A stretch of DNA of 18,212 nt from Candidatus Anstonellales archaeon. GTDB lineage: Archaea; Micrarchaeota; Micrarchaeia; Anstonellales; CG1-02-47-40. Positions 1 to 11,364 of the stretch are shown here, one piece after another. Made by a program: the position numbers and the translations under genes. The DNA lies in the NCBI GenBank assembly GCA_038869735.1, contig JAWCQO010000011.1, positions 1 through 18,212 of the forward strand, given 5' to 3'. Numbering within the stretch: the stretch's first letter is position 1; each line of letters opens with the position of its first letter. The notes beneath the pieces were generated by a model. That model saw nothing but the letters and a program-made list of their open reading frames with translations. It ran no database searches and had not been told where the DNA came from.

Positions 1-1266
1 TGTGGCTTGGACTATCTCCTTGTAGTTTCTTATAACTTGCTCTGGATCTTTGGAAAACATCTCTGCGATAATGGGATTGGAAAGGGCTTTGAAGGCCCAA
101 CTTGCGTCTTCACCTGTGGCTTGGGCTATTTTGACAACTGCATCTGGGTGTTGTGCAAAAAGGGAAGCGACGGTGTTATTTGAAAGGGCTTCGAAGGCCC
201 AATCTGCTCTTTCACCTGCGGCTTGGGCTATTTTGACAAATGGATCTGGGTGTTGTGCAAAAAGGGAAGCGACGGTGTTATTTGAAAGGGCTTCGAAGGC
301 CAACCATGCGCCTTTACCTGTGGCTTGGACTATCTCCTTGAAGTTTCTTATAACTTGCTCTGGATCTTTGGAAAACATCTCTGCGATAATGGGATTGGAA
401 AGGGCTTTGAAGGCCCAGCTTGCGTAGATACCTGCGGCTTGGGCTATTTGGACAAATTCACCTGTGTATTTTTCAAAAAGGGAAGCGACTTTGTCATCTG
501 AAAGGGCTTTGAAGGCCGCCCATGCGTTTTCACCTGCGGCTTGGGCTATTTGGACAAATTCACCTGTGTATTTTTCAAAAAGGGAAGCGACGGTGTTATT
601 TGAAAGGGCTTCGAAGGCCAACCATGCGTCTTTACCTGTAGCTTGGGCTATTTGGACAACTGCATCTGGGTGTTGTGCAAAAAGGGAAGCGACTTTGTAA
701 TTTGAAAGGGCTTTGAAGGCCAACCATGCGCCTTTACCTGTGGCTTGGGCTATTTGGACAAATTCACCTGTGTATTTTTCAAAAAGGGAAGCGACGGTGT
801 TATTTGAAAGGGCTTTGAAGGCCGCCCATGCGCTTTTACCTGTAGCTTGGGCTATTTGGACAAATTCACCTGTGTATTTTTCAAAAAGGGAAGCGACTTT
901 GTAATTTGAAAGGGCTTTGAAGGCCCAACTTGCGTCTTCACCTGTGGCTTGGGCTATTTTGACAACTGCATCTGGGTGTTGTGCAAAAAGGGAAGCGACT
1001 TTGTAATTTGAAAGGGCTTTGAAGGCCAAACCTGCGTCTTTACCTGTGGCTTGGGCTATTTGGACAAATGCATCTGGGTGTTGTGCAAAAAGGGGAGCGA
1101 CTTTGTAATTTGAAAGGGCTTTGAAGGCCGAACCTGCGTCTTTACCTGTGGCTTGGGCTATTTGGACAAATGCATCTGGGTGTTGTGCAAAAATGGGAGC
1201 GACTTTGTAATTTGAAAGGGCTTTGAAGGCCAACCATGCGTTTTCACCTGCGGCTTGGGCTATCGC
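1..1266. repeat. Tandem 102-bp coding repeat array (about 12 units)
   Basis: The word AAAGGGCT recurs at 81, 183, 285, 399, 501, 603, 705, 807, 909, 1011, 1113 and 1215. Spacing is exactly 102 bases except for one 114-base step (285 to 399). Nucleotide identity is very high, including synonymous sites. Half-unit variants occur in different combinations: FAQHPDA, FEKYTGE and FSKDPEQ for the first helix, and tails NYKVA, NNTVA, DDKVA and NPIIA. The 114-base unit carries four extra residues in the FSKDPEQ type. The pattern indicates recent expansion with recombination between units. It is coding sequence, not CRISPR. Confidence 0.95.
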
Positions 1267-4698: not shown

Positions 4699-5991
4699 TT
4701 GATTGAATCAGTAAAATCAATTGTTGATTTATTGACACAGACTAGGTATGGTGAGGTAGTGAGTAGTAGTGCATATGATGCAATTGTAGTCGGGGGAGGG
4801 CCTGCAGGATCTACGTGTGCTGCCCTATTAGGAAGAAGAGGGCACAATGTTCTTCTGATTGAAAAAAATAAATTTCCAAGAGATAAAATTTGCGGAGATG
4901 CGGTTAGTGGAAAATCAATGAAGGTCCTCAATGAACTTGGGCTTCTTCAGGAAGCTGAAAGTCTACCGCATGGGGAGATTAGAGGGGTTATCTTCTCGTC
5001 GCCATCCGGTGAGGAGGTTAGGATAGAATTTCCAAAAAATGACCCAATAAGAAAAGGTACGGGCTATTGCTGCAGGAGGATTTATCATGATAACCTACTT
5101 TTTCAAAACGCAAAAAAATATGCTAAGACTTTAGAAAACTTTCAGGTTTATGACCTTATTTTGAACGGAAAACAAGTAGTGGGAGTAAAAGGAAGGAACA
5201 CAGAAACTGGGGAGGAACAAGAGTTTGGAGCAAAAGTTGTTGTTGGTTGTGATGGGGTAGGTTCGATTGTAGCAAGAAAAACAGGTAACGCGCAAACTGA
5301 TCCAAAACATTTGTGTCAGGCATTTAGGGCTTATTATAAAAACGTAGCAGGACTTAGCGACAACATTGAGATACATTTCGTTGACTCACTAATACCTGGG
5401 TATTTTTGGATTTTTCCGGTTGGGGAGGATAGTGCAAATGTAGGAGTTGGGATGGTAATGGATGACGTTACAAGAAAAAAGATAAACTTAAGACAAGCCC
5501 TCTTGGATATAGTCCTAACGCATCCTAGATTTAAAGATAGGTTCAAAGATGCAATCCAAGAGGAAGGAAGCGTTAAGGCTTGGTCTTTACCGTTTGGGTC
5601 TAGACTTCCAAAATGCTATGGAGACGGTTTCGTTCTTTGCGGTGATGCGGCTTCATTAGTAGACCCGTTCTCTGGAGAGGGTGTTGGAAATGCTATGACG
5701 AGTGCATCTATAGCGGCAAAGGTGATAAGCCAAGCTTTAAGTGAAGGGGATACTTCTGCAAAGTCGCTGTCAAGGTATGAGAACGCACTTATAAGCGAAC
5801 TAAAGGTTGAGTTAGATACGTCTTATCTTCTCCAGAGGTTGGGAAGAGTTACACCGATACTAAACTTTATAATAGGAAAGGCAAGAAAGAGCCAGGAGGT
5901 GCGAGAAACTATTTCTGGCATGCTTGCAAATCAAGAAGCAAAAAAGGAATTTATATCGCCCCTATTTTACTTACGACTTCTTTTAGCTTAG
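4699..5991 (+). CDS. Geranylgeranyl reductase family flavoprotein (copy 1)
   Basis: 430 residues if the TTG at 4699 is used; an in-frame GTG at 4759 would give 410 residues and a more usual short N-terminus before AYDAIVVGGGPAG. FAD-binding motifs are all present: GGGPAG (32-37) with LLIEK, GCDGVGS, and GDAASLVDPFSGEGVG near the C-terminus. The substrate-side motif PGYFWIFP matches the YxWxFP signature of archaeal geranylgeranyl reductases, and KICGDAVS holds the usual Cys after the FAD fold. The enzyme reduces double bonds of geranylgeranyl chains in archaeal membrane lipids or related isoprenoids. A paralogue lies at 12414. Its end overlaps the remnant on the other strand by 9 bases. Confidence 0.92.
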   Translation: MIESVKSIVDLLTQTRYGEVVSSSAYDAIVVGGGPAGSTCAALLGRRGHNVLLIEKNKFPRDKICGDAVSGKSMKVLNELGLLQEAESLPHGEIRGVIFSSPSGEEVRIEFPKNDPIRKGTGYCCRRIYHDNLLFQNAKKYAKTLENFQVYDLILNGKQVVGVKGRNTETGEEQEFGAKVVVGCDGVGSIVARKTGNAQTDPKHLCQAFRAYYKNVAGLSDNIEIHFVDSLIPGYFWIFPVGEDSANVGVGMVMDDVTRKKINLRQALLDIVLTHPRFKDRFKDAIQEEGSVKAWSLPFGSRLPKCYGDGFVLCGDAASLVDPFSGEGVGNAMTSASIAAKVISQALSEGDTSAKSLSRYENALISELKVELDTSYLLQRLGRVTPILNFIIGKARKSQEVRETISGMLANQEAKKEFISPLFYLRLLLA

Positions 5992-6883
5992 CGGAAAGTG
6001 GATTATGAAAAGCTTATTGTAGGTGAGAGATTTAGTGGCTTTGACAGAGGATGGTCGAGCTGGAAAAAGAGATATTGTTAAATTATAAATACCAGGCTCA
6101 TTTGGAGTTGTTAATGCATTTAATCTTGATAGCTCTATTGAATAGAGATTGTTCCAACCGATACAGGAATTTTCCAGTTCTAAATAAGTACAGTTTCTTA
6201 TCTCCTCCGGTTTTTCATTAGTTGTTCCACAATTATTTACGTCAACACAAGTTCTTGTTTGGGTTCTATTTCGAGGGCAGATTTCTGGACCCCACGAACT
6301 ACAGGTCCAATTCTCTATGCAATTTGCCATAACCCCCCGCTTTCATTATTTCTAATTTCTTGAACACGTTGATTAGATATGGCATCGCATGTATAATTTT
6401 TGAGGCAACCATACTGATTACATAGCGGTATAAGGTTCCCCTTATTATTGCAATAGAGTGGTTTAGAGATGGAACAAGAATTATAAAGGGTTCCGTCACT
6501 ACAATAGTTCTGTAGAAGAGGTTCTTCATTACATTTTCCTCAATTACAACCGTATGGACAAGGATAGGGTTGTGAGAGGCATAACATTCCATCAGAACTA
6601 CAATAATACTCATTTAAACTTAGGTCGTTTAGACAAGAATCTTTATAAAAAATTTGTGTGGTATCATTACAGTTTCACGGAATATAAATATTTTGGCCAT
6701 CATCACTATCCGTACATAGGGGGGAGTATATCTTCCAGTAATTATTCTGCTAATTATTCCCCCACTAATTCCACCCTTCCTTCTACTTTCTTCAGAACAA
6801 GCAGCATAACCGGCTCCTTCACCTGAAATGATATTATTCCTAATTCTAAAACTTCTCAGACTTAGTTGGTTTAATTCTTGCAA
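5983..6883 (-). pseudogene. Broken Cys-rich extracellular protein gene (CPYGC-type repeats)
   Basis: Joining three minus-strand frames gives a coherent protein end. The first frame holds ...AACSEESRRKGG...RYTPP. The second (6719-6315) holds LCTDSDDGQNIYIP, DSCLNDLSLNEYYC, CPYGCN and many spaced cysteines. The third (6330-5983) holds NCIENWTCSSWGPE and TQTRTCVDVNNCGT. Such modules are common in secreted cell-surface proteins of DPANN archaea. Both frame changes lie at six-base homopolymers (C on the coding strand at 6719-6724, G at 6333-6338), and one extra base in each would restore the frame. Two in-frame TGA codons (6675-6677 and 6540-6542) also interrupt it. The 5' end is missing at the border with the 6883 gene. 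No signal peptide remains. Confidence 0.75.
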
Positions 6884-7206: not shown

Positions 7207-7238
7207 AGCCTCCGCCCGGAAAAATAAGAAAAAATTTT

Positions 7239-7306
7239 GTTTAACTTTCGTTAGATGAAAGTTGCGTAGCAATTTCATTCTCTCTTTTCCTCCTATGAAG
7301 TTAAAC
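7239..7306. repeat. Structured hairpin element, copy A
   Basis: An outer stem GTTTAACTT (7239-7247) / AAGTTAAAC (7298-7306) encloses GTTAGAT (7250-7256) and a nested hairpin ATGAAAGTTGC-GTA-GCAATTTCAT (7255-7278). It is followed by GAAGGCAACAAC (7307-7318). A second copy at 10335-10401 has the same layout and nearly the same length (68 versus 67 bases). Both stems carry compensatory changes between the copies, which indicates conserved secondary structure. Confidence 0.8.
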
Positions 7307-7367
7307 GAAGGCAACAACATCATTATAATTTACGGCCTCCTTTCCGTGAAATGCAGGTTTTCGAATT

Positions 7368-7467
7368 GCACATAACGTATGCGATTAAGAGAAGTTTTTG
7401 CGAAGGAAAAATTGGGTGGAGCCGAGCGGCAAGCTAAGGGGGAACCGTATAAGCGCTGTTAAGTCCC
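7368..7467. other. attC-like recombination site candidate, copy A (weak)
   Basis: GCACATAAC (7368-7376) and GTTAAGTCC (7458-7466) frame about 90 bases rich in small hairpins, including GCC-GAGC-GGC (about 7421-7430). GTTAAGT fits the integron R' box consensus GTTRRRY, and ATAAC / GTTA can pair. The words ATAACGTATGCGATTAAG and GTTAAGTCC recur, in similar or reverse-complement form, in the element at 8184-8275. The inner L boxes do not pair well here, so this copy is degenerate or misassigned. Confidence 0.35.
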
Positions 7468-7508
7468 TTTTTCTGAAAGAAAAAATCTAGAATTGCGAAG
7501 CAAAATTC
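7468..7508. repeat. Two GAA-loop mini-hairpins
   Basis: TTTTTCT-GAA-AGAAAAA (7468-7484) is a perfect hairpin. GAATTGCGAAGCAAAATTC (7490-7508) contains GCGAAGC, the exceptionally stable DNA mini-hairpin, inside an imperfect stem. The first may also end transcription from the plus strand. They lie between the attC-like site and the 3' end of the CDGSH gene. Confidence 0.5.
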
Positions 7509-7540
7509 AGAGAAGTCGCTGACGAAGTGCGCCACAAGAA

Positions 7541-7738
7541 TTAATATTTTTTAATCTCAATTCTTTTCCCATTCTCATATTTATACAATTTCCCTTCTTC
7601 TTCGCCACTACATTGCTTGTGTGAGCCATCGCAGAAAGGTTTATTTTTGCTCAATCCACACATACAAATCCATTTGCTTTCTCCACCAACTTTTACTTCC
7701 ATCGGCATTTTTTCTTCATGTTTTACAATTCTTGCCAT
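7541..7738 (-). CDS. CDGSH-type iron-sulfur protein
   Basis: 65 residues with one CDGSH (mitoNEET-like) motif. C25 and C27 in WICMCGLS, then C36 and H40 in PFCDGSHK, are the 3Cys-1His ligands of a redox-active [2Fe-2S] cluster. No membrane anchor is present, so it should be a small cytoplasmic electron-transfer or iron-sulfur-transfer protein. A strong Shine-Dalgarno (GGAGGT) is six bases before the ATG. It is divergent from an HxlR-type regulator. An inverted repeat in the shared promoter overlaps its TATA box, so it is probably repressed by that regulator. Both genes lie between structured noncoding elements, suggesting they move as one unit. Confidence 0.93.
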   Translation of the reverse strand: MARIVKHEEKMPMEVKVGGESKWICMCGLSKNKPFCDGSHKQCSGEEEGKLYKYENGKRIEIKKY

Positions 7739-7848
7739 CTTTATACCTCCATTAGTAATCTTTTTATAGTATCTTGACTATACTATGTATAACAATGAGA
7801 ACTATATAAATGTTGTAGTAACCAAAAGTAAAGTTTTAGGTGAATTGA
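7739..7848. promoter_or_regulatory. Divergent promoter/operator of CDGSH and HxlR genes
   Basis: ATAGTAT (7766-7772), CTTGACT, ATACTAT (7780-7786) is a perfect 7-bp inverted repeat. On the minus strand it overlaps the probable TATA box ACTATAAAAAG of the CDGSH gene. On the plus strand TATATAAA (about 7803-7810) lies about 40 bases before the HxlR ATG, whose Shine-Dalgarno is AGGTGA (7838-7843). The layout suggests HxlR binding that blocks CDGSH transcription. Confidence 0.6.
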
Positions 7849-8157
7849 ATGGAAAAAATTTGTCCAATAACAAAAACATTGATTTATCTTAGTAAAAAAT
7901 GGGCTTTATTGATTTTGAGAGAATTACACCAGAGTGGAACAAAAAGATTTAACGATTTAATCAAAGAAATGGAGAATATTAGCCCAAGAACTTTATCAAA
8001 GCGATTGAAAGAATTGGAAAAGTTAGGATTAGTCTCAAGGAAAAAATTTAATGAAATTCCACCAAGAGTTGATTATTCATTGACTAAGAAAGGAAAAGAG
8101 TTGGTTAAGTGCTTCAAACATCTTGATATTTGGGTTAAAAAATTTGATGTAAAATAA
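7849..8157 (+). CDS. HxlR-family winged-helix transcriptional regulator
   Basis: 102 residues, typical length. The family pattern is clear: MEKICPITKTLIYLSKKWALLIL at the N-terminus with the conserved Cys5, KRFNDLIKEMENISPRTLSKRL as the HTH, LEKLGLVSRK, then the wing with PPRVDYSLTKKGKEL. The N-terminal Cys is used by several HxlR/HypR-type regulators to sense electrophiles or oxidants, so a redox-responsive role is plausible; this is inference. Good Shine-Dalgarno upstream. Divergent from the CDGSH gene. Its stop codon is followed at once by GTTAGGC, which matches the GTTRRRY recombination-box consensus. Confidence 0.92.
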   Translation: MEKICPITKTLIYLSKKWALLILRELHQSGTKRFNDLIKEMENISPRTLSKRLKELEKLGLVSRKKFNEIPPRVDYSLTKKGKELVKCFKHLDIWVKKFDVK

Positions 8158-8183
8158 GTTAGGCACCCGTAGTCAGCGATTGG

Positions 8184-8275
8184 ACTTAACGTATGCGATT
8201 TAACGAAGTCAGCCGAAGGCTTGATTTAGGTGAAGTGAACCGCAGGTGAGCGGAGCCGTTAAATCAATGTTATGC
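8184..8275. other. attC-like recombination site candidate, copy C (best)
   Basis: ACTTAAC (8184-8190, fits RYYYAAC) and GTTATGC (8269-8275) frame a perfect 9-bp stem GATTTAACG (8197-8205) / CGTTAAATC (8257-8265). Inside are AGCC-GAA-GGCT (8211-8221) and CCGC (8240-8243) / GCGG (8250-8253) hairpins. Read on the minus strand the ends are GCATAAC and GTTAAGT, the latter an exact GTTRRRY. Two end boxes, inner paired boxes separated by short spacers, and an imperfect palindrome of 92 bases are the architecture of integron attC sites. A recombination function is not proven. Confidence 0.5.
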
Positions 8276-8398
8276 TCTCTGACCAAAGGAAAGACGAAAT
8301 TTTAGTGCAACGATGCCAAAGGCAAAAATTTCGAGTTGCGAGTCCGCCGAAAATTTTTTGCCACTGTAGTTTTTTCTTTAGGGAGTGCTGCCGTCTTT
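8269..8398. repeat. Left inverted flank of the restriction-modification module
   Basis: Three words recur in the same order and inverted at the other end of the module: GTTATGCTC (8269-8277), CGAGTCCGCC (8339-8348) and GAGTGCTGCCG (8383-8393). Their partners are GAGCATAAC (10456-10464), GGCGGACTCG (10441-10450) and CGGCGGCACTC (10298-10308). A strong hairpin GGCAAAAATTTCG (8321-8333) / CGAAAATTTTTTGCC (8348-8362) lies inside. The 8158-8459 stretch has no gene, apart from a probable nuclease TATA box TTATAAAAA (about 8412-8420). Confidence 0.6.
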
Positions 8399-8459
8399 AG
8401 ACATTCTTCATCTTATAAAAAAAGATGTATTTTTAAAGAGAAATGTATGACTATGATTT

Positions 8460-9242
8460 ATGGAAAGCAAAAAACGAAACTCAATAAACATACTCTTCAA
8501 TAAGCTGTATGAAAAGAGCCAGAAAGCAAAAGTTATAGAATTCACAAATACGGAATTAAAAAAGATTACTCAAGACACTAAATTTATGAATCAGTTTGAT
8601 GCCACAAAGTTTGATTCTTCTGATTTATTGCCAGAAAGCTTAAAACAAAATGGGTATTTTATAGTTCATCTTGGTAAAGGAAAACACGCGTTTGTAAAGG
8701 GAAATGGCTATCATAAATTTGAGAAGATAATCAAAATAAAGAATATAGATGTTACAAAAAGTGTAATAGATGATGTAGGAAATAGCGAAGCTGGAGCAGT
8801 TTCATTCATTTACAATGAAGGTATCATACAAGATTTTCTTGGCGTAAAACACCTCAAAATTCACACTGCAAGAAGATCAAAAGTTTCTTTTTCATTCAGA
8901 GTAAATGGTTCAAAACTGCATGCTGATAAACAGCAAATAGAGATAGATGGAATATTTGAAACAAAAGACGGAATGATAGTAACCGTTGAAGCCAAAAATG
9001 TAGAATACGCCGATTTTGAGATAAGGCAACTTTTCAGCATAAAGAAGTATTTTGATATGCTTATGGAAAAAGGTGACATACCAAAAGGCACAAATCTGCG
9101 TTTACTTTTCTTAATGAGATTGAGAAATGAAAAGCAAAATTTATGCAGATTATACGAATACAAATTCACAGATGACGAAGACATTAATTCAATAAAATTT
9201 ATTCGGGCAGTTCAATATAATATTAGCATAAAAACTAAGTGA
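8460..9242 (+). CDS. PD-(D/E)xK type II restriction endonuclease (probable)
   Basis: 260 residues. The nuclease core is seen as IEIDGIF (D163, preceded by E161), then 12 residues on VEAKN (E177, K179), followed by FEIRQLF (Q190): strand-turn-strand plus helix as in PD-(D/E)xK enzymes. Residues 1-155 would form the recognition and dimerisation part and I cannot name a subtype. The gene is convergent with a DNA methyltransferase and overlaps it by 8 bases, which strongly supports a type II restriction-modification pair. Start ATG 8460 has a TATA box about 40 bases upstream and no clear Shine-Dalgarno. It ends with TGA. Target sequence cannot be read from this. Confidence 0.75.
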   Translation: MESKKRNSINILFNKLYEKSQKAKVIEFTNTELKKITQDTKFMNQFDATKFDSSDLLPESLKQNGYFIVHLGKGKHAFVKGNGYHKFEKIIKIKNIDVTKSVIDDVGNSEAGAVSFIYNEGIIQDFLGVKHLKIHTARRSKVSFSFRVNGSKLHADKQQIEIDGIFETKDGMIVTVEAKNVEYADFEIRQLFSIKKYFDMLMEKGDIPKGTNLRLLFLMRLRNEKQNLCRLYEYKFTDDEDINSIKFIRAVQYNISIKTK

Positions 9243-9993
9243 ATTTGTCTAAAGGATTAATATTTTCCAATCTTTTTTTACCGATTTCAACATATTTAGG
9301 GTTAATATCTATGCCTATTGAATTTCTGCCAAGTTCTTTTGCGGCGGCACAAGTTGAGAAACTGCCAGCAAAAGGATCCATAACCCAATCACCTACATTA
9401 CTGCTGGCTTTTATGAATATTTTTAACAAAGGAACAGGTATCTGACATGGATGAGGAGTTTTATCTTTGCTTACATTTTTTACAAGATTAAATTGAAATA
9501 CATCATATGGGGCTCTTCCGTTGCTTCCATTTTTCAATCTTTCTTGTATTCTTTTATCCGTTGGATTTTTGTAAGGTTCTGCAATATCTTGTCTATTGAA
9601 TTTATGTTTTTTTGTTTTTGTGCAAAATATTATAGAATGTTGTGTTCTGGTGAAATTAGTTTTTGAATGACCCGTGTTCGTAGGATAATGCCACGTCATC
9701 CATCGTTTGAAAATCATTTTTTCCTTCAAGAACGGCAATAAATAGGCGTTATTCTCTGGATAATTAAACAGATATAGACTTCCATCTTTTTTTAATAAGC
9801 GAATACATTCGGAAAGCCAAAGTTTACACCATTCTATATATTCTTCAAATTTTTTATTATCTTTATAAACTCCACCATAATCTTTACCTATATTGAATGG
9901 CGGATCTGTGATTATCAAATCTACTGATTCGGAGGGCATTTTTTTCATTATTTCTAAACAATCGCCTACTAATAGTTTATGTTCTGTTGCCAT
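9235..9993 (-). CDS. DNA methyltransferase, beta-class (N6-adenine or N4-cytosine)
   Basis: 252 residues from ATG 9993 (MATEHKLLVGDCLEIM); a TTG three codons earlier is also open, but the ATG fits the family better. Catalytic motif IV DPPFNIG is at 30-36 and the S-adenosylmethionine motif I DPFAGSFST is near the C-terminus (206-214), followed by GIDINPKY. That order (IV, then target recognition, then I) defines the beta class. The central region (~95-180) would read the target. It should methylate the site cut by the convergent nuclease. Its start lies inside the end of the ribbon-helix-helix gene (17-base overlap), indicating translational coupling. Complete, with no motif missing. Confidence 0.93.
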   Translation of the reverse strand: MATEHKLLVGDCLEIMKKMPSESVDLIITDPPFNIGKDYGGVYKDNKKFEEYIEWCKLWLSECIRLLKKDGSLYLFNYPENNAYLLPFLKEKMIFKRWMTWHYPTNTGHSKTNFTRTQHSIIFCTKTKKHKFNRQDIAEPYKNPTDKRIQERLKNGSNGRAPYDVFQFNLVKNVSKDKTPHPCQIPVPLLKIFIKASSNVGDWVMDPFAGSFSTCAAAKELGRNSIGIDINPKYVEIGKKRLENINPLDKFT

Positions 9994-10141
9994 TTTTACC
10001 AACTTTCAATTTATTTAATTTTTCATAAACAGCATTATTAACAAAGGCTGAAACTGTTGGGTGTTTATACTTATTTCCGTTCTTATTTAGCCATGCTTGA
10101 ACTTCTTTTATCAATTTATCGTCTATTCTTACTACACCCAT
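9977..10141 (-). CDS. Ribbon-helix-helix (CopG/Arc-like) small regulator
   Basis: 54 residues from ATG 10141. MGVVRIDDKLIKEVQAWL gives the N-terminal strand and first helix. After a loop, HPTVSAFVNNAVYEKL gives the second helix, beginning with the Thr-Val-Ser turn common in ribbon-helix-helix DNA-binding proteins. The short Lys-rich tail ends within the methyltransferase start. As first gene of the methyltransferase transcript, with an inverted repeat at the expected transcription start, it probably autoregulates the pair, playing the part controller proteins play in other restriction-modification systems. That role is inference. Family assignment rests on pattern and size. Confidence 0.7.
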   Translation of the reverse strand: MGVVRIDDKLIKEVQAWLNKNGNKYKHPTVSAFVNNAVYEKLNKLKVGKNGNRT

Positions 10142-10151
10142 TCTTTACACC

Positions 10152-10200
10152 GTTACTTTTTGTAACATTATGTTAATAATGTGTTACACTTATATTTAAA
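10152..10200 (-). promoter_or_regulatory. Promoter and operator of the RHH-methyltransferase transcript
   Basis: On the minus strand TTTAAATATA (10191-10200) is a TATA box. Immediately downstream lies TGTAAC (10161-10166) with its inverted partner GTTACA (10183-10188), near-palindromic across 28 bases. A further GTTAC (10152-10156) forms a second inverted repeat with GTAAC (10162-10166). The repeats cover the predicted start of transcription, the position expected for a repressor site. Confidence 0.65.
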
Positions 10201-10295
10201 CCTTTCGTTTTTGAGACGCTCCTTCGTTTTATAATTAAGGTATGAAGAACAGTTTATTAATATTTTCATGCAAAGCAGACGATATTTCCGAAAGA

Positions 10296-10310
10296 CTCGG
10301 CGGCACTCTC
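10296..10310. repeat. Right inverted flank word of the restriction-modification module
   Basis: CGGCGGCACTC (10298-10308) is the inverted counterpart, with one mismatch, of GAGTGCTGCCG at 8383-8393. The following AGATTTAAGAAAAAATTTCG (about 10316-10335) also resembles the run before hairpin copy A. The stretch 10201-10551 contains no credible gene. Confidence 0.45.
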
Positions 10311-10334
10311 TTGTAAGATTTAAGAAAAAATTTC

Positions 10335-10401
10335 GTTAAAATTTTGTTAGACGATTTGCGAAGCAATTTCGTTTTTTTGTTTCCGTTTTGTGAATTTTAA
10401 C
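10335..10401. repeat. Structured hairpin element, copy B
   Basis: The outer stem is GTTAAAATT (10335-10343) / AATTTTAAC (10393-10401), then GTTAGAC (10346-10352), and the nested hairpin is ACGATTTGC-GAA-GCAATTTCGT (10351-10372). GAAGGCAACAAC follows at 10402-10413, as after copy A. Compared with copy A, stem bases change on both arms while pairing is kept. Confidence 0.8.
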
Positions 10402-10455
10402 GAAGGCAACAACGAATTTTCGGCGGCAACCTCGTTAAGAGGCGGACTCGTAATT

Positions 10456-10478
10456 GAGCATAACCACTATTAAGCGAG
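10456..10478. other. attC-like half site, copy B (truncated)
   Basis: GAGCATAACCACTATTAAGCG (from 10456) parallels the GCATAAC end and the GATTAAG inner box of the other two sites. No matching GTTRRRY end with a paired inner box follows, so only half a site remains at the border with the recombinase pseudogene. This could mark the broken right end of the island. Confidence 0.35.
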
Positions 10479-10488
10479 ATAATTATTC

Positions 10489-10505
10489 GTTTTATAATAT
10501 AAAAC
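10489..10505. promoter_or_regulatory. 17-bp perfect palindrome upstream of the recombinase remnant
   Basis: GTTTTATA-A-TATAAAAC is perfectly symmetrical. It includes a TATA-like sequence on both strands and could be a promoter/operator of the former recombinase gene or simply a chance AT palindrome. Confidence 0.3.
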
Positions 10506-10551: not shown

Positions 10552-11364
10552 ATAGTAAATGATGTCTGTTTTCAGGAAGAAAAATATGAAGTGATTGGCA
10601 AGCTTATTGAGGAAATAAAACTCAGAAGGTATTCATATCAAACAGGCAAGTCATATATTTTCATAATGAAAGAATTTCTATCTTCGAGTAAAACACCTAA
10701 ATAGTTTTACTATCTTACACATCAAAAAGCAAATCAACAAAAAGACCGGCTTATTTTACTTTGGAGTTTTTTCATTAAAATGCACTAAATACTATATTTA
10801 AGAAAAATTTCCACTTGCAAAAAGGCCGTTGAAACTGTCCTTAATTTTTGAATAAAGAAGAAATAAACAAAATGATAGAATCTACAAACAATTTGAAGCA
10901 TAAGATTGCTATCATGTTTCTCTATTATGCTGGCTTGCGTCTGGATGAAATAAGAAATCTTAAATGGGAAGACATAGACTTCGACAGAGAAATAATTCAT
11001 CTTAAAACAACAAAGAGTGACAAAGAAAGAATTGTATTTCTTCATAAAAAACTGATTGATGTGTTGAAAATATATGAAACTAAGGAAGAAGGCCCAATTT
11101 TTATTTCCAAACGGAAAGGGAAATACAACAAGTGGACAATCCAACAAATTGTCAAATCAGCTTCCAAGAAAGCAGGGATAAAGAAGAATATCACACCACA
11201 TACGCTAAGGCACAGCTTTTTGCGACCCCTCTATTAGAATCTGGCGTTGATATTCTATATATTCAGCAGTTATTGGGACATAGGGACATAAAGATTTAAA
11301 AACAACTCAAATCTATACACATGTAACAAACAAAGACATTAAAAAATTAGCAAATCTACTTTGA
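10552..11364 (+). pseudogene. XerA-type tyrosine recombinase, decayed
   Basis: The whole protein can be followed across frames. 10576-10701 encodes the N-terminal SAM-like core-binding domain (GKLIEEIKLRRYSYQTGKSY...MKEFLSS), then TAG at 10702. 10779-10845 holds the linker (SLKCTKYYI, stop, EKFPLAKRPLKL). 10848-11237 holds the catalytic domain from NKEEINKMIES. After a two-base excess in a T5 run (about 11216-11220) the frame moves to ATPLLESGVDILYIQQLLGH. An 8-base near-duplication CATAGGGA/CATAAAGA then shifts it to LKTTQIYTHVTNKDI, ending with TGA at 11362-11364. All catalytic residues remain (GLR Arg, Lys, HTLRH, GHRD His, Tyr in IYTHV). No IntI-specific insert is seen. It is inactive unless these changes are assembly errors. 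Confidence 0.85.

What the first reader, a model, noticed from the sequence alone, without database searches (positions are those of the whole stretch)
7207..10480. Possible archaeal gene-cassette cluster with attC-like sites (CALIN-like)
Two compact modules, CDGSH/HxlR and nuclease/methyltransferase/RHH, are separated and bounded by three related, structured noncoding elements (7207-7540, 8158-8400, 10290-10480). They share end boxes (GCATAAC or CATAAC, GTTAAGTCC, GTTATGC, GTTAGGC), inner words GATTAAG/GATTTAACG, and CGAGTCCGCC. The middle element (8184-8275) has end boxes plus a perfect 9-bp inner stem, the layout of an integron attC. Integrons and cassettes have been reported in archaea, but the extra hairpin modules here are not part of a standard attC. 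No integron integrase is present. The sharing of words and stems is directly visible; recombination activity is inference.
Basis: partly seen in the sequence, partly recalled or inferred. Interest (0 to 1): 0.75.

Follow-up and report, generated by a model that had tools for sequence, protein, structure and literature searches.

The report
Archaeal gene-cassette array with Xer-type integrase
A tiny archaeon carries the remains of a gene-collecting platform that is built like a bacterial integron but lies beside a different, Xer-type recombinase; relatives of it sit in about a quarter of the genomes of a related archaeal phylum, where it appears to swap small gene packages.

Summary
(1) The third element is not an attC; its right end (10456-10497) is an attI-like attachment site. 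(2) An integrase does lie next door: a decayed Xer-type tyrosine recombinase (10576-11364), the only Phage_integrase match in the genome. (3) The sites are not canonical attCs. The key test is the cassette rule: the 9-nt start box of each cassette must be complementary to the box at its own end. In the window this holds 9/9 twice (GTTAAGTCC/GGACTTAAC; GTTATGCTC/GAGCATAAC). A covariance model of the site found arrays in 93 of 371 genomes of another archaeal phylum. Over 32 loci, 50 of 76 neighbouring sites obey the rule (6.9 expected; 0 of 20,000 permutations). On all 23 contigs checked that hold both, an integrase gene lies downstream of the sites on the same strand. These integrases lack the IntI-specific insertion (55-66 versus 104-106 residues), and no genome of the 371 has an IntI above the family cut-off. 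It works like an integron but fails the defining integrase test, so I file it as an integron-like platform with a Xer-type integrase. Recombination itself has not been shown.

The parts
7368..7466 (+). attC-like site 1: R'' GCACATAAC 7368-7376, body 7377-7457, R' GTTAAGTCC 7458-7466
   Evidence: CM R1 76.1 bits, E=5e-17 in own genome (the model was built from it among others); R' complementary 9/9 to R'' of site 2
7458..8190 (.). Cassette 2 (second from attI): CDGSH protein (7541-7738, -) and HxlR regulator (7849-8157, +), bounded by GTTAAGTCC and GGACTTAAC
   Evidence: 9/9 inverted boundary boxes; Pfam zf-CDGSH and HxlR
8182..8277 (+). attC-like site 2: R'' GGACTTAAC 8182-8190, body 8191-8268 with 9-bp inner stem, R' GTTATGCTC 8269-8277
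   Evidence: CM R1 80.8 bits; second copy at C8 88%; covarying stem
8269..10464 (.). Cassette 1 (next to attI): DUF6996/DUF6997 nuclease-like protein (8460-9242, +), N6/N4 DNA methyltransferase (9235-10002, -), small RHH-like ORF (about 9980-10141, -), bounded by GTTATGCTC and GAGCATAAC
   Evidence: 9/9 inverted boundary boxes; Pfam DUF6996, DUF6997, N6_N4_Mtase; the small ORF has no Pfam match, RHH by eye
10456..10497 (+). attI-like junction: cassette-end box GAGCATAAC 10456-10464, then CACTATTAAGCG and imperfect inverted arm CGTTTTATAA 10488-10497
   Evidence: same motif upstream of most of about 28 other integrase genes
10576..11364 (+). Decayed Xer-type tyrosine recombinase (integrase pseudogene): three in-frame stops in the best matching stretch, one more upstream, at least two frameshifts; only Phage_integrase match in the genome
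   Evidence: PF00589; tblastn of the L112 integrase, 70% over the best 185 residues
6883..7206 (+). ORF of unknown family in the truncated third cassette (no partner box GTTATGTGC found in the window)
7225..7318 (+). Recurrent hairpin module before the box of site 1
   Evidence: 79% to 10321-10413; same module in about ten other loci
8278..8378 (+). Conserved extension after site 2
   Evidence: part of the 88% match to C8; 84% over 144 bp to L096:9243-9386
10321..10413 (+). Recurrent hairpin module before the attI-side cassette end

Best explanation
The region is the relic of an integron-like gene-cassette platform run by a Xer-type tyrosine recombinase. Read on the minus strand the layout is integrase (now a pseudogene) - attI-like site - cassette 1 (nuclease-like protein, methyltransferase, small RHH-like ORF) - attC-like site - cassette 2 (CDGSH, HxlR) - attC-like site - truncated cassette 3. 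Each cassette carries its own 9-nt box at the start and its complement at the end, so an excised circular cassette would hold a fully paired palindromic site, while sites in the array pair only at TAAC/GTTA. Because nearly every box begins with GTTA and the next five bases travel with the cassette, the crossover must fall in or at the edge of GTTA. Inferred: the integrase joins cassette circles to attI and excises them, probably acting on a folded single-stranded site as in integrons, with polarity from the unequal spacers (3-4 nt against 1 nt). In this genome the integrase is dead, so the array is frozen unless another enzyme acts in trans.
For: Boundary rule: 9/9 twice in the window, 4 of 4 in the five-site array L058; 50/76 neighbours match at 4 or more of 5 variable bases against 6.9 expected, 35 perfect against 2.1, 0/20,000 permutations, and 33/38 when under 1 kb apart. 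Six of seven site-attI pairs scored are perfect; the seventh (L103) looks like a mislocated attI, and L059 gives 4/5. Inner stem covariation. Integrase gene downstream of the sites on the same strand on 23 of 23 contigs compiled; integrase and sites co-occur by genome, Fisher P=5e-9. attI motif in 29 loci by automatic call, a few of them doubtful. A 95% identical cassette interior shared by two genomes, with homology ending near the sites. No IntI-type insertion; no IntI over cut-off in 371 genomes.
Against: No recombination event was observed directly; no empty/occupied attI pair was found. In 26 of 76 neighbour pairs the boxes do not match, mostly over longer gaps or weak sites, and in the shared cassette of L057/L105 the end boxes differ between the two genomes. 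Stand-alone DNA folding of the two window sites is not clearly better than shuffles. Cassette ORFs are not mainly in one orientation (29 against 22). 29 of 65 integrase-positive genomes had no site at the threshold. The named records are MAGs, and the others probably are too.
Confidence: 0.82

Rival explanations
1. A canonical IntI-type integron CALIN, acquired from bacteria or from the archaeal integrons of Ghaly et al. 2022; the nearby Xer-type gene is incidental.
For: Same cassette grammar and layout as bacterial integrons; archaeal integrons and CALINs are reported, also in Nanoarchaeota and Aenigmatarchaeota (PMC9668308).
Against: Integrase beside the array in the same arrangement on 23 contigs; attI-like motif directly upstream of the integrase in most of 29 loci, with boundary boxes matching into the array; no IntI over cut-off in 371 genomes; only 36 of 106 sites fit GTTRRRY or RYYYAAC; R1 finds nothing in 83 kb of canonical integron regions.
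Confidence: 0.1
2. Modules mobilised by host XerA at dif-like sites, as in pdif modules or Xer-exploiting elements.
For: The recombinase is closest to archaeal XerA (NF040815, 172-222 bits, cut-off 220); the attI-like site is an inverted repeat resembling a dif site.
Against: A fixed dif sequence does not predict variable 9-nt boxes that are complementary across each cassette, nor palindromic sites with covarying stems.
Confidence: 0.05
3. Transposons or MITEs with terminal inverted repeats.
For: Each cassette has 9-bp inverted ends; repeated ends extend inward in cassette 1.
Against: Cassettes tile head to tail with a conserved site between them, no transposase was seen in the window, and the inverted ends differ in sequence from cassette to cassette.
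Confidence: 0.02
4. Structured RNA elements (for example untranslated-region elements) next to unrelated genes.
For: Strong covariation of an 11-bp stem.
Against: No Rfam match; gene orientation relative to the sites is mixed; complementarity between boxes hundreds to thousands of bases apart is unexplained.
Confidence: 0.01

Closest known systems
Bacterial and archaeal integrons (IntI, attI, attC), including the archaeal integrons of Ghaly et al. 2022 (PMC9668308)
   Same: Integrase gene pointing away from the array, attI-like site upstream of it, tandem cassettes each ending in a palindromic site, start and end boxes of one cassette complementary, inferred crossover at GTT(A), varied small-gene cargo.
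   Different: The integrase lacks the IntI-specific insertion and is closest to archaeal XerA; boxes are GTTANNNNN followed by CAAT or AAAT rather than GTTRRRY; the site body differs (ATC or RTAT against T spacer, 11-bp covarying stem); the site model does not find canonical attCs; cassette genes lie in both orientations.
Archaeal XerA and bacterial XerC/XerD chromosome dimer resolvases
   Same: The integrase has the Xer-type length and domain content (Phage_integrase, no IntI insertion) and scores best against NF040815.
   Different: Sits beside cassette arrays with an attI-like site, mostly scores just below the NF040815 cut-off, and occurs in a minority of genomes (65 of 371).
CTXphi and other elements exploiting Xer recombination; pdif modules
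   Same: Xer-type enzyme; CTXphi integrates through a folded single-stranded site (discussed in PMC4792948).
   Different: Those borrow the host Xer at fixed dif sites; here the platform carries its own integrase and variable cassette boxes.

Membership tests
Integron (IntI type) | Integrase with PF00589 and the IntI-specific additional domain | tested here: not met
   33 related integrases have 55-66 residues between KGxKxR and HTLRH against 104-106 in four IntIs; IntI4 aligns in two stretches around the gap; 132-196 bits against the TIGR02249 cut-off of 265; 0 of 371 genomes over the cut-off
Integron (IntI type) | attI site next to the integrase gene where the first cassette joins | tested here: met
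   attI-like motif upstream of the integrase in most of 29 loci; 6 of 7 scored site-attI box pairs perfect; sequence only, function not tested
Integron (IntI type) | Tandem cassettes with complementary start and end boxes | tested here: met
Integron (IntI type) | attC with R'' RYYYAAC and R' GTTRRRY | tested here: not met
   only 36 of 106 sites fit each consensus
Integron (IntI type) | Palindromic, foldable attC body | tested here: met
   11-bp stem with compensatory changes; stand-alone DNA folding clearly better than shuffles for only some sites
Integron (IntI type) | Hit by an attC covariance model (IntegronFinder, HattCI) | not testable with these tools
   Model not available; a home-made canonical model had no base pairs and was not used; reverse test: R1 finds no canonical attC
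Integron (IntI type) | Recombination on a folded single strand | not testable with these tools
   needs an experiment
CALIN | At least two attCs less than 4 kb apart without an integron integrase | tested here: inconclusive
   Two attC-like sites 0.8 kb apart and a dead non-IntI integrase; the sites are not canonical attCs
Archaeal XerA | Score over the NF040815 cut-off (220 bits) | tested here: inconclusive
   172-222 bits in eight array-linked integrases, one over the cut-off

The most novel reading that the evidence does not exclude
A separate lineage of integron-like platforms in DPANN archaea in which a Xer-type recombinase without the IntI-specific domain captures and exchanges gene cassettes through its own attI and attC sites; either the kind of ancestor from which IntI integrons arose or an independent invention.
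Probability: 0.65. Interest if true: 0.9.

Novelty: new variant of a known kind. Interest (0 to 1): 0.82.

Why it matters
The IntI-specific domain is held to be the adaptation that lets a Xer-like enzyme recombine folded attC sites, and the origin of integrons from Xer enzymes is an open question (PMC4792948). A widespread cassette platform beside a Xer-type enzyme without that domain makes the question testable. It would also add a gene-exchange route for small archaea (93 of 371 genomes of one phylum have the sites), carrying methyltransferases, restriction-modification-like genes, toxin-antitoxin-like pairs and transporters; IntegronFinder, which requires the IntI-specific domain, would not name its integrase.

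Tried and rejected
Rfam: no match in the window. Plasmid DNA search with site 2: none. Viral contigs with exact site and attI patterns: none (the attI pattern was narrow). Two Spiroplasma records and one Moritella record from the pattern scan look like chance matches, without a matching L'/R' half. A first version of the boundary test mislocated boxes in AACTAAC and GTTAGTT and was redone. A home-made canonical attC model had no base pairs and was dropped. The integrase tree is only a rough guide: the three least similar array-linked integrases group with other Xer-type genes. L061 and L058 share an identical 127 bp end, most simply an assembly overlap, and this is not counted as cassette transfer. 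Reading element 3 as a third attC was rejected in favour of attI after comparison with L029.
Full report
SETTING. The window is a whole 18,212-base contig (C11) of an 884 kb genome in 15 contigs, 97% complete. A named Micrarchaeota MAG record (L034) carries a locus identical to one in G075, a genome of the same order as the window, so the host is probably a DPANN archaeon of that phylum.

THE OBSERVATION. The middle element has a second copy on another contig of the same genome, C8, 88% identical over 192 bases, beside a DNA methyltransferase gene. Two contigs of one bin carrying related elements argue against a single stray contaminant contig.

THE TEST THAT DECIDES WHETHER THESE ARE CASSETTES. 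In an integron each cassette brings its own start box, and the box at its end is the complement of that start box, because both were one paired stem in the excised circle. In the window GTTAAGTCC (7458) is complementary to GGACTTAAC (8182), and GTTATGCTC (8269) to GAGCATAAC (10456), 9/9 each. Such 9-mer pairs also occur by chance elsewhere in the window (nine pairs starting with GTT within 4 kb), but these two tile head to tail exactly at the elements. A pattern scan of genome contigs found the site in a Nanoarchaeota, an Aenigmatarchaeota and a Micrarchaeota MAG and in a MAG labelled bacterium whose contig has an archaeal-type TFB gene (TFB by my reading). A covariance model R1 built from seven sites then found multi-site arrays. 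In L058, five sites give four cassettes and all four obey the rule over 9 bases, including one whose boxes read GTTC instead of GTTA. Over 106 sites in 32 loci, 50 of 76 neighbour pairs match at 4 or more of the 5 variable positions against 6.9 expected, 35 perfectly against 2.1, and no permutation of 20,000 came above 19; under 1 kb the rate is 33 of 38.

THE SITE. Consensus on the window's plus strand: AATTGNNNNTAAC, spacer (ATC or RTAT), 11-bp stem arm, variable hairpin, complementary arm, T, GTTANNNNN. The stem covaries in 10 of 11 pairs (cells paired 95.4% against at most 45% when slid; the alignment was fitted to this structure, which favours it). The spacers are unequal, 3-4 nt against 1 nt, which could give strand polarity; this is inference. 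Only 36 of 106 fit RYYYAAC or GTTRRRY. R1 finds nothing at E up to 10 in 83 kb of class 1 and phage integron regions. I could not run the IntegronFinder or HattCI models.

THE INTEGRASE. The only Phage_integrase match in the genome lies just downstream of the attI-like arms (10576-11364) and is a pseudogene: against the intact L112 integrase it has three in-frame stops in the best 185-residue match, one more upstream, and frameshifts. An L029-type integrase search over 371 genomes of the phylum of G302 (the genome of L029) found matches at E up to 1e-25 in 65 genomes; sites occur in 93; 36 have both, Fisher P=5e-9. On the 23 contigs I compiled that hold both, including the window, the integrase always lies downstream of the sites on the same strand (compiled by hand from the listings, so the list may not be complete). 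The open frames are 237-318 residues long, lack the IntI-specific insertion (55-66 residues against 104-106), and score 172-222 bits against archaeal XerA (cut-off 220) and 132-196 against IntI (cut-off 265) in eight tested. No genome of the 371 has an IntI over the cut-off.

THE attI-LIKE SITE. Directly upstream of the integrase, before what looks like a TATA-type promoter, 29 loci carry by automatic call a cassette-end box followed by a motif near ANCTATTAARCG and, in most, an inverted arm near CGYTTAATAG (a few of the 29 calls, such as L119, L138 and L103, are probably misplaced). Where a site lies upstream in the same locus, the box at attI is complementary to that site's R' in 6 of 7 scored cases at all five variable bases, and at 4 of 5 in L059. 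So the third element of the finding is the end of the first cassette plus attI.

MOBILITY. One cassette interior with a transporter-like gene (L057:4566-5842) is 95% identical to L105:6696-5420 in another genome, and homology stops close to the sites, whose bodies and boxes differ. This shows transfer of a cassette-sized unit but also that ends can be replaced, which I cannot explain. I found no direct empty/occupied pair.

CARGO. Cassettes with clear boundaries have a median length of 774 bases (44 cassettes; ORFs 29 against 22 in the two orientations). Pfam and PADLOC matches include DNA methyltransferases, other methyltransferases, a Vsr endonuclease, GmrSD, an E1-E2 ATPase and an HD domain. 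L028 and L029 carry what look like AbrB/RelE-type and AbrB/MazF-type pairs beside sites (by eye). The window's cassette 1 pairs a DUF6996/6997 protein with a DNA methyltransferase, plausibly a restriction-modification system (inference).

DISTRIBUTION. In the window's own phylum only 4 of 301 genomes have sites, all in one order, against 93 of 371 in the phylum of G302. That fits horizontal arrival in the window's lineage; it is inference.

MECHANISM. Shown: cassette grammar, covarying palindromic sites, attI-like junction, linked integrase without the IntI insertion. Inferred: the integrase catalyses capture and excision; the substrate is a folded strand; the crossover lies in GTTA. In this genome the enzyme is dead.

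KNOWN OR NEW. Archaeal integrons were reported in 75 MAGs with six IntIs, and the search required the IntI-specific domain (PMC9668308); most were CALINs, so some of these arrays may already be in that list. A review of archaeal tyrosine recombinases names integrons only in passing and has no occurrence of the word cassette in its main text (PMC8371274). Searches of the open-access library found no cassette platform with a Xer-type integrase; subscription papers and preprints were not covered.

Noticed in passing
window 7225-7318 and 10321-10413; L091, L096, L099, L101, L110, L123, L125, L130, L131, L136: A recurrent hairpin module (half-site like CGTTAAAT..GTTAG, a GCGAAGC hairpin in many copies, complementary arm ending TTTAACGAAGGCANC) mostly 50-70 nt before a cassette-end box, often the one at attI; function unknown.
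   Followed up: partly
L057:4566-5842 and L105:6696-5420: Transporter cassette interior 95% identical in two genomes with different sites and boxes at both ends.
   Followed up: partly
G000:C8:6394-7750: A second site copy beside a methyltransferase gene on another contig of the same genome, with no integrase on that contig; the outer site is degenerate.
   Followed up: partly
L092, L093, L094 (G434 contigs C7, C17, C19): Contig ends fall in identical 139-141 bp site copies, so assemblies break at these repeats.
   Followed up: no
window 76-1263: Tandem array of 102-bp units, 11.5 copies, 83% matches, mostly open in frame.
   Followed up: no
window 5983-6883, minus strand: A Cys-rich ORF series split over several frames, probably a second pseudogene or sequencing errors at homopolymers.
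   Followed up: no
L028:127-225 and L029:2020-2118: Nearly identical site bodies in MAGs labelled Aenigmatarchaeota and Nanoarchaeota but with different boxes on both sides.
   Followed up: no
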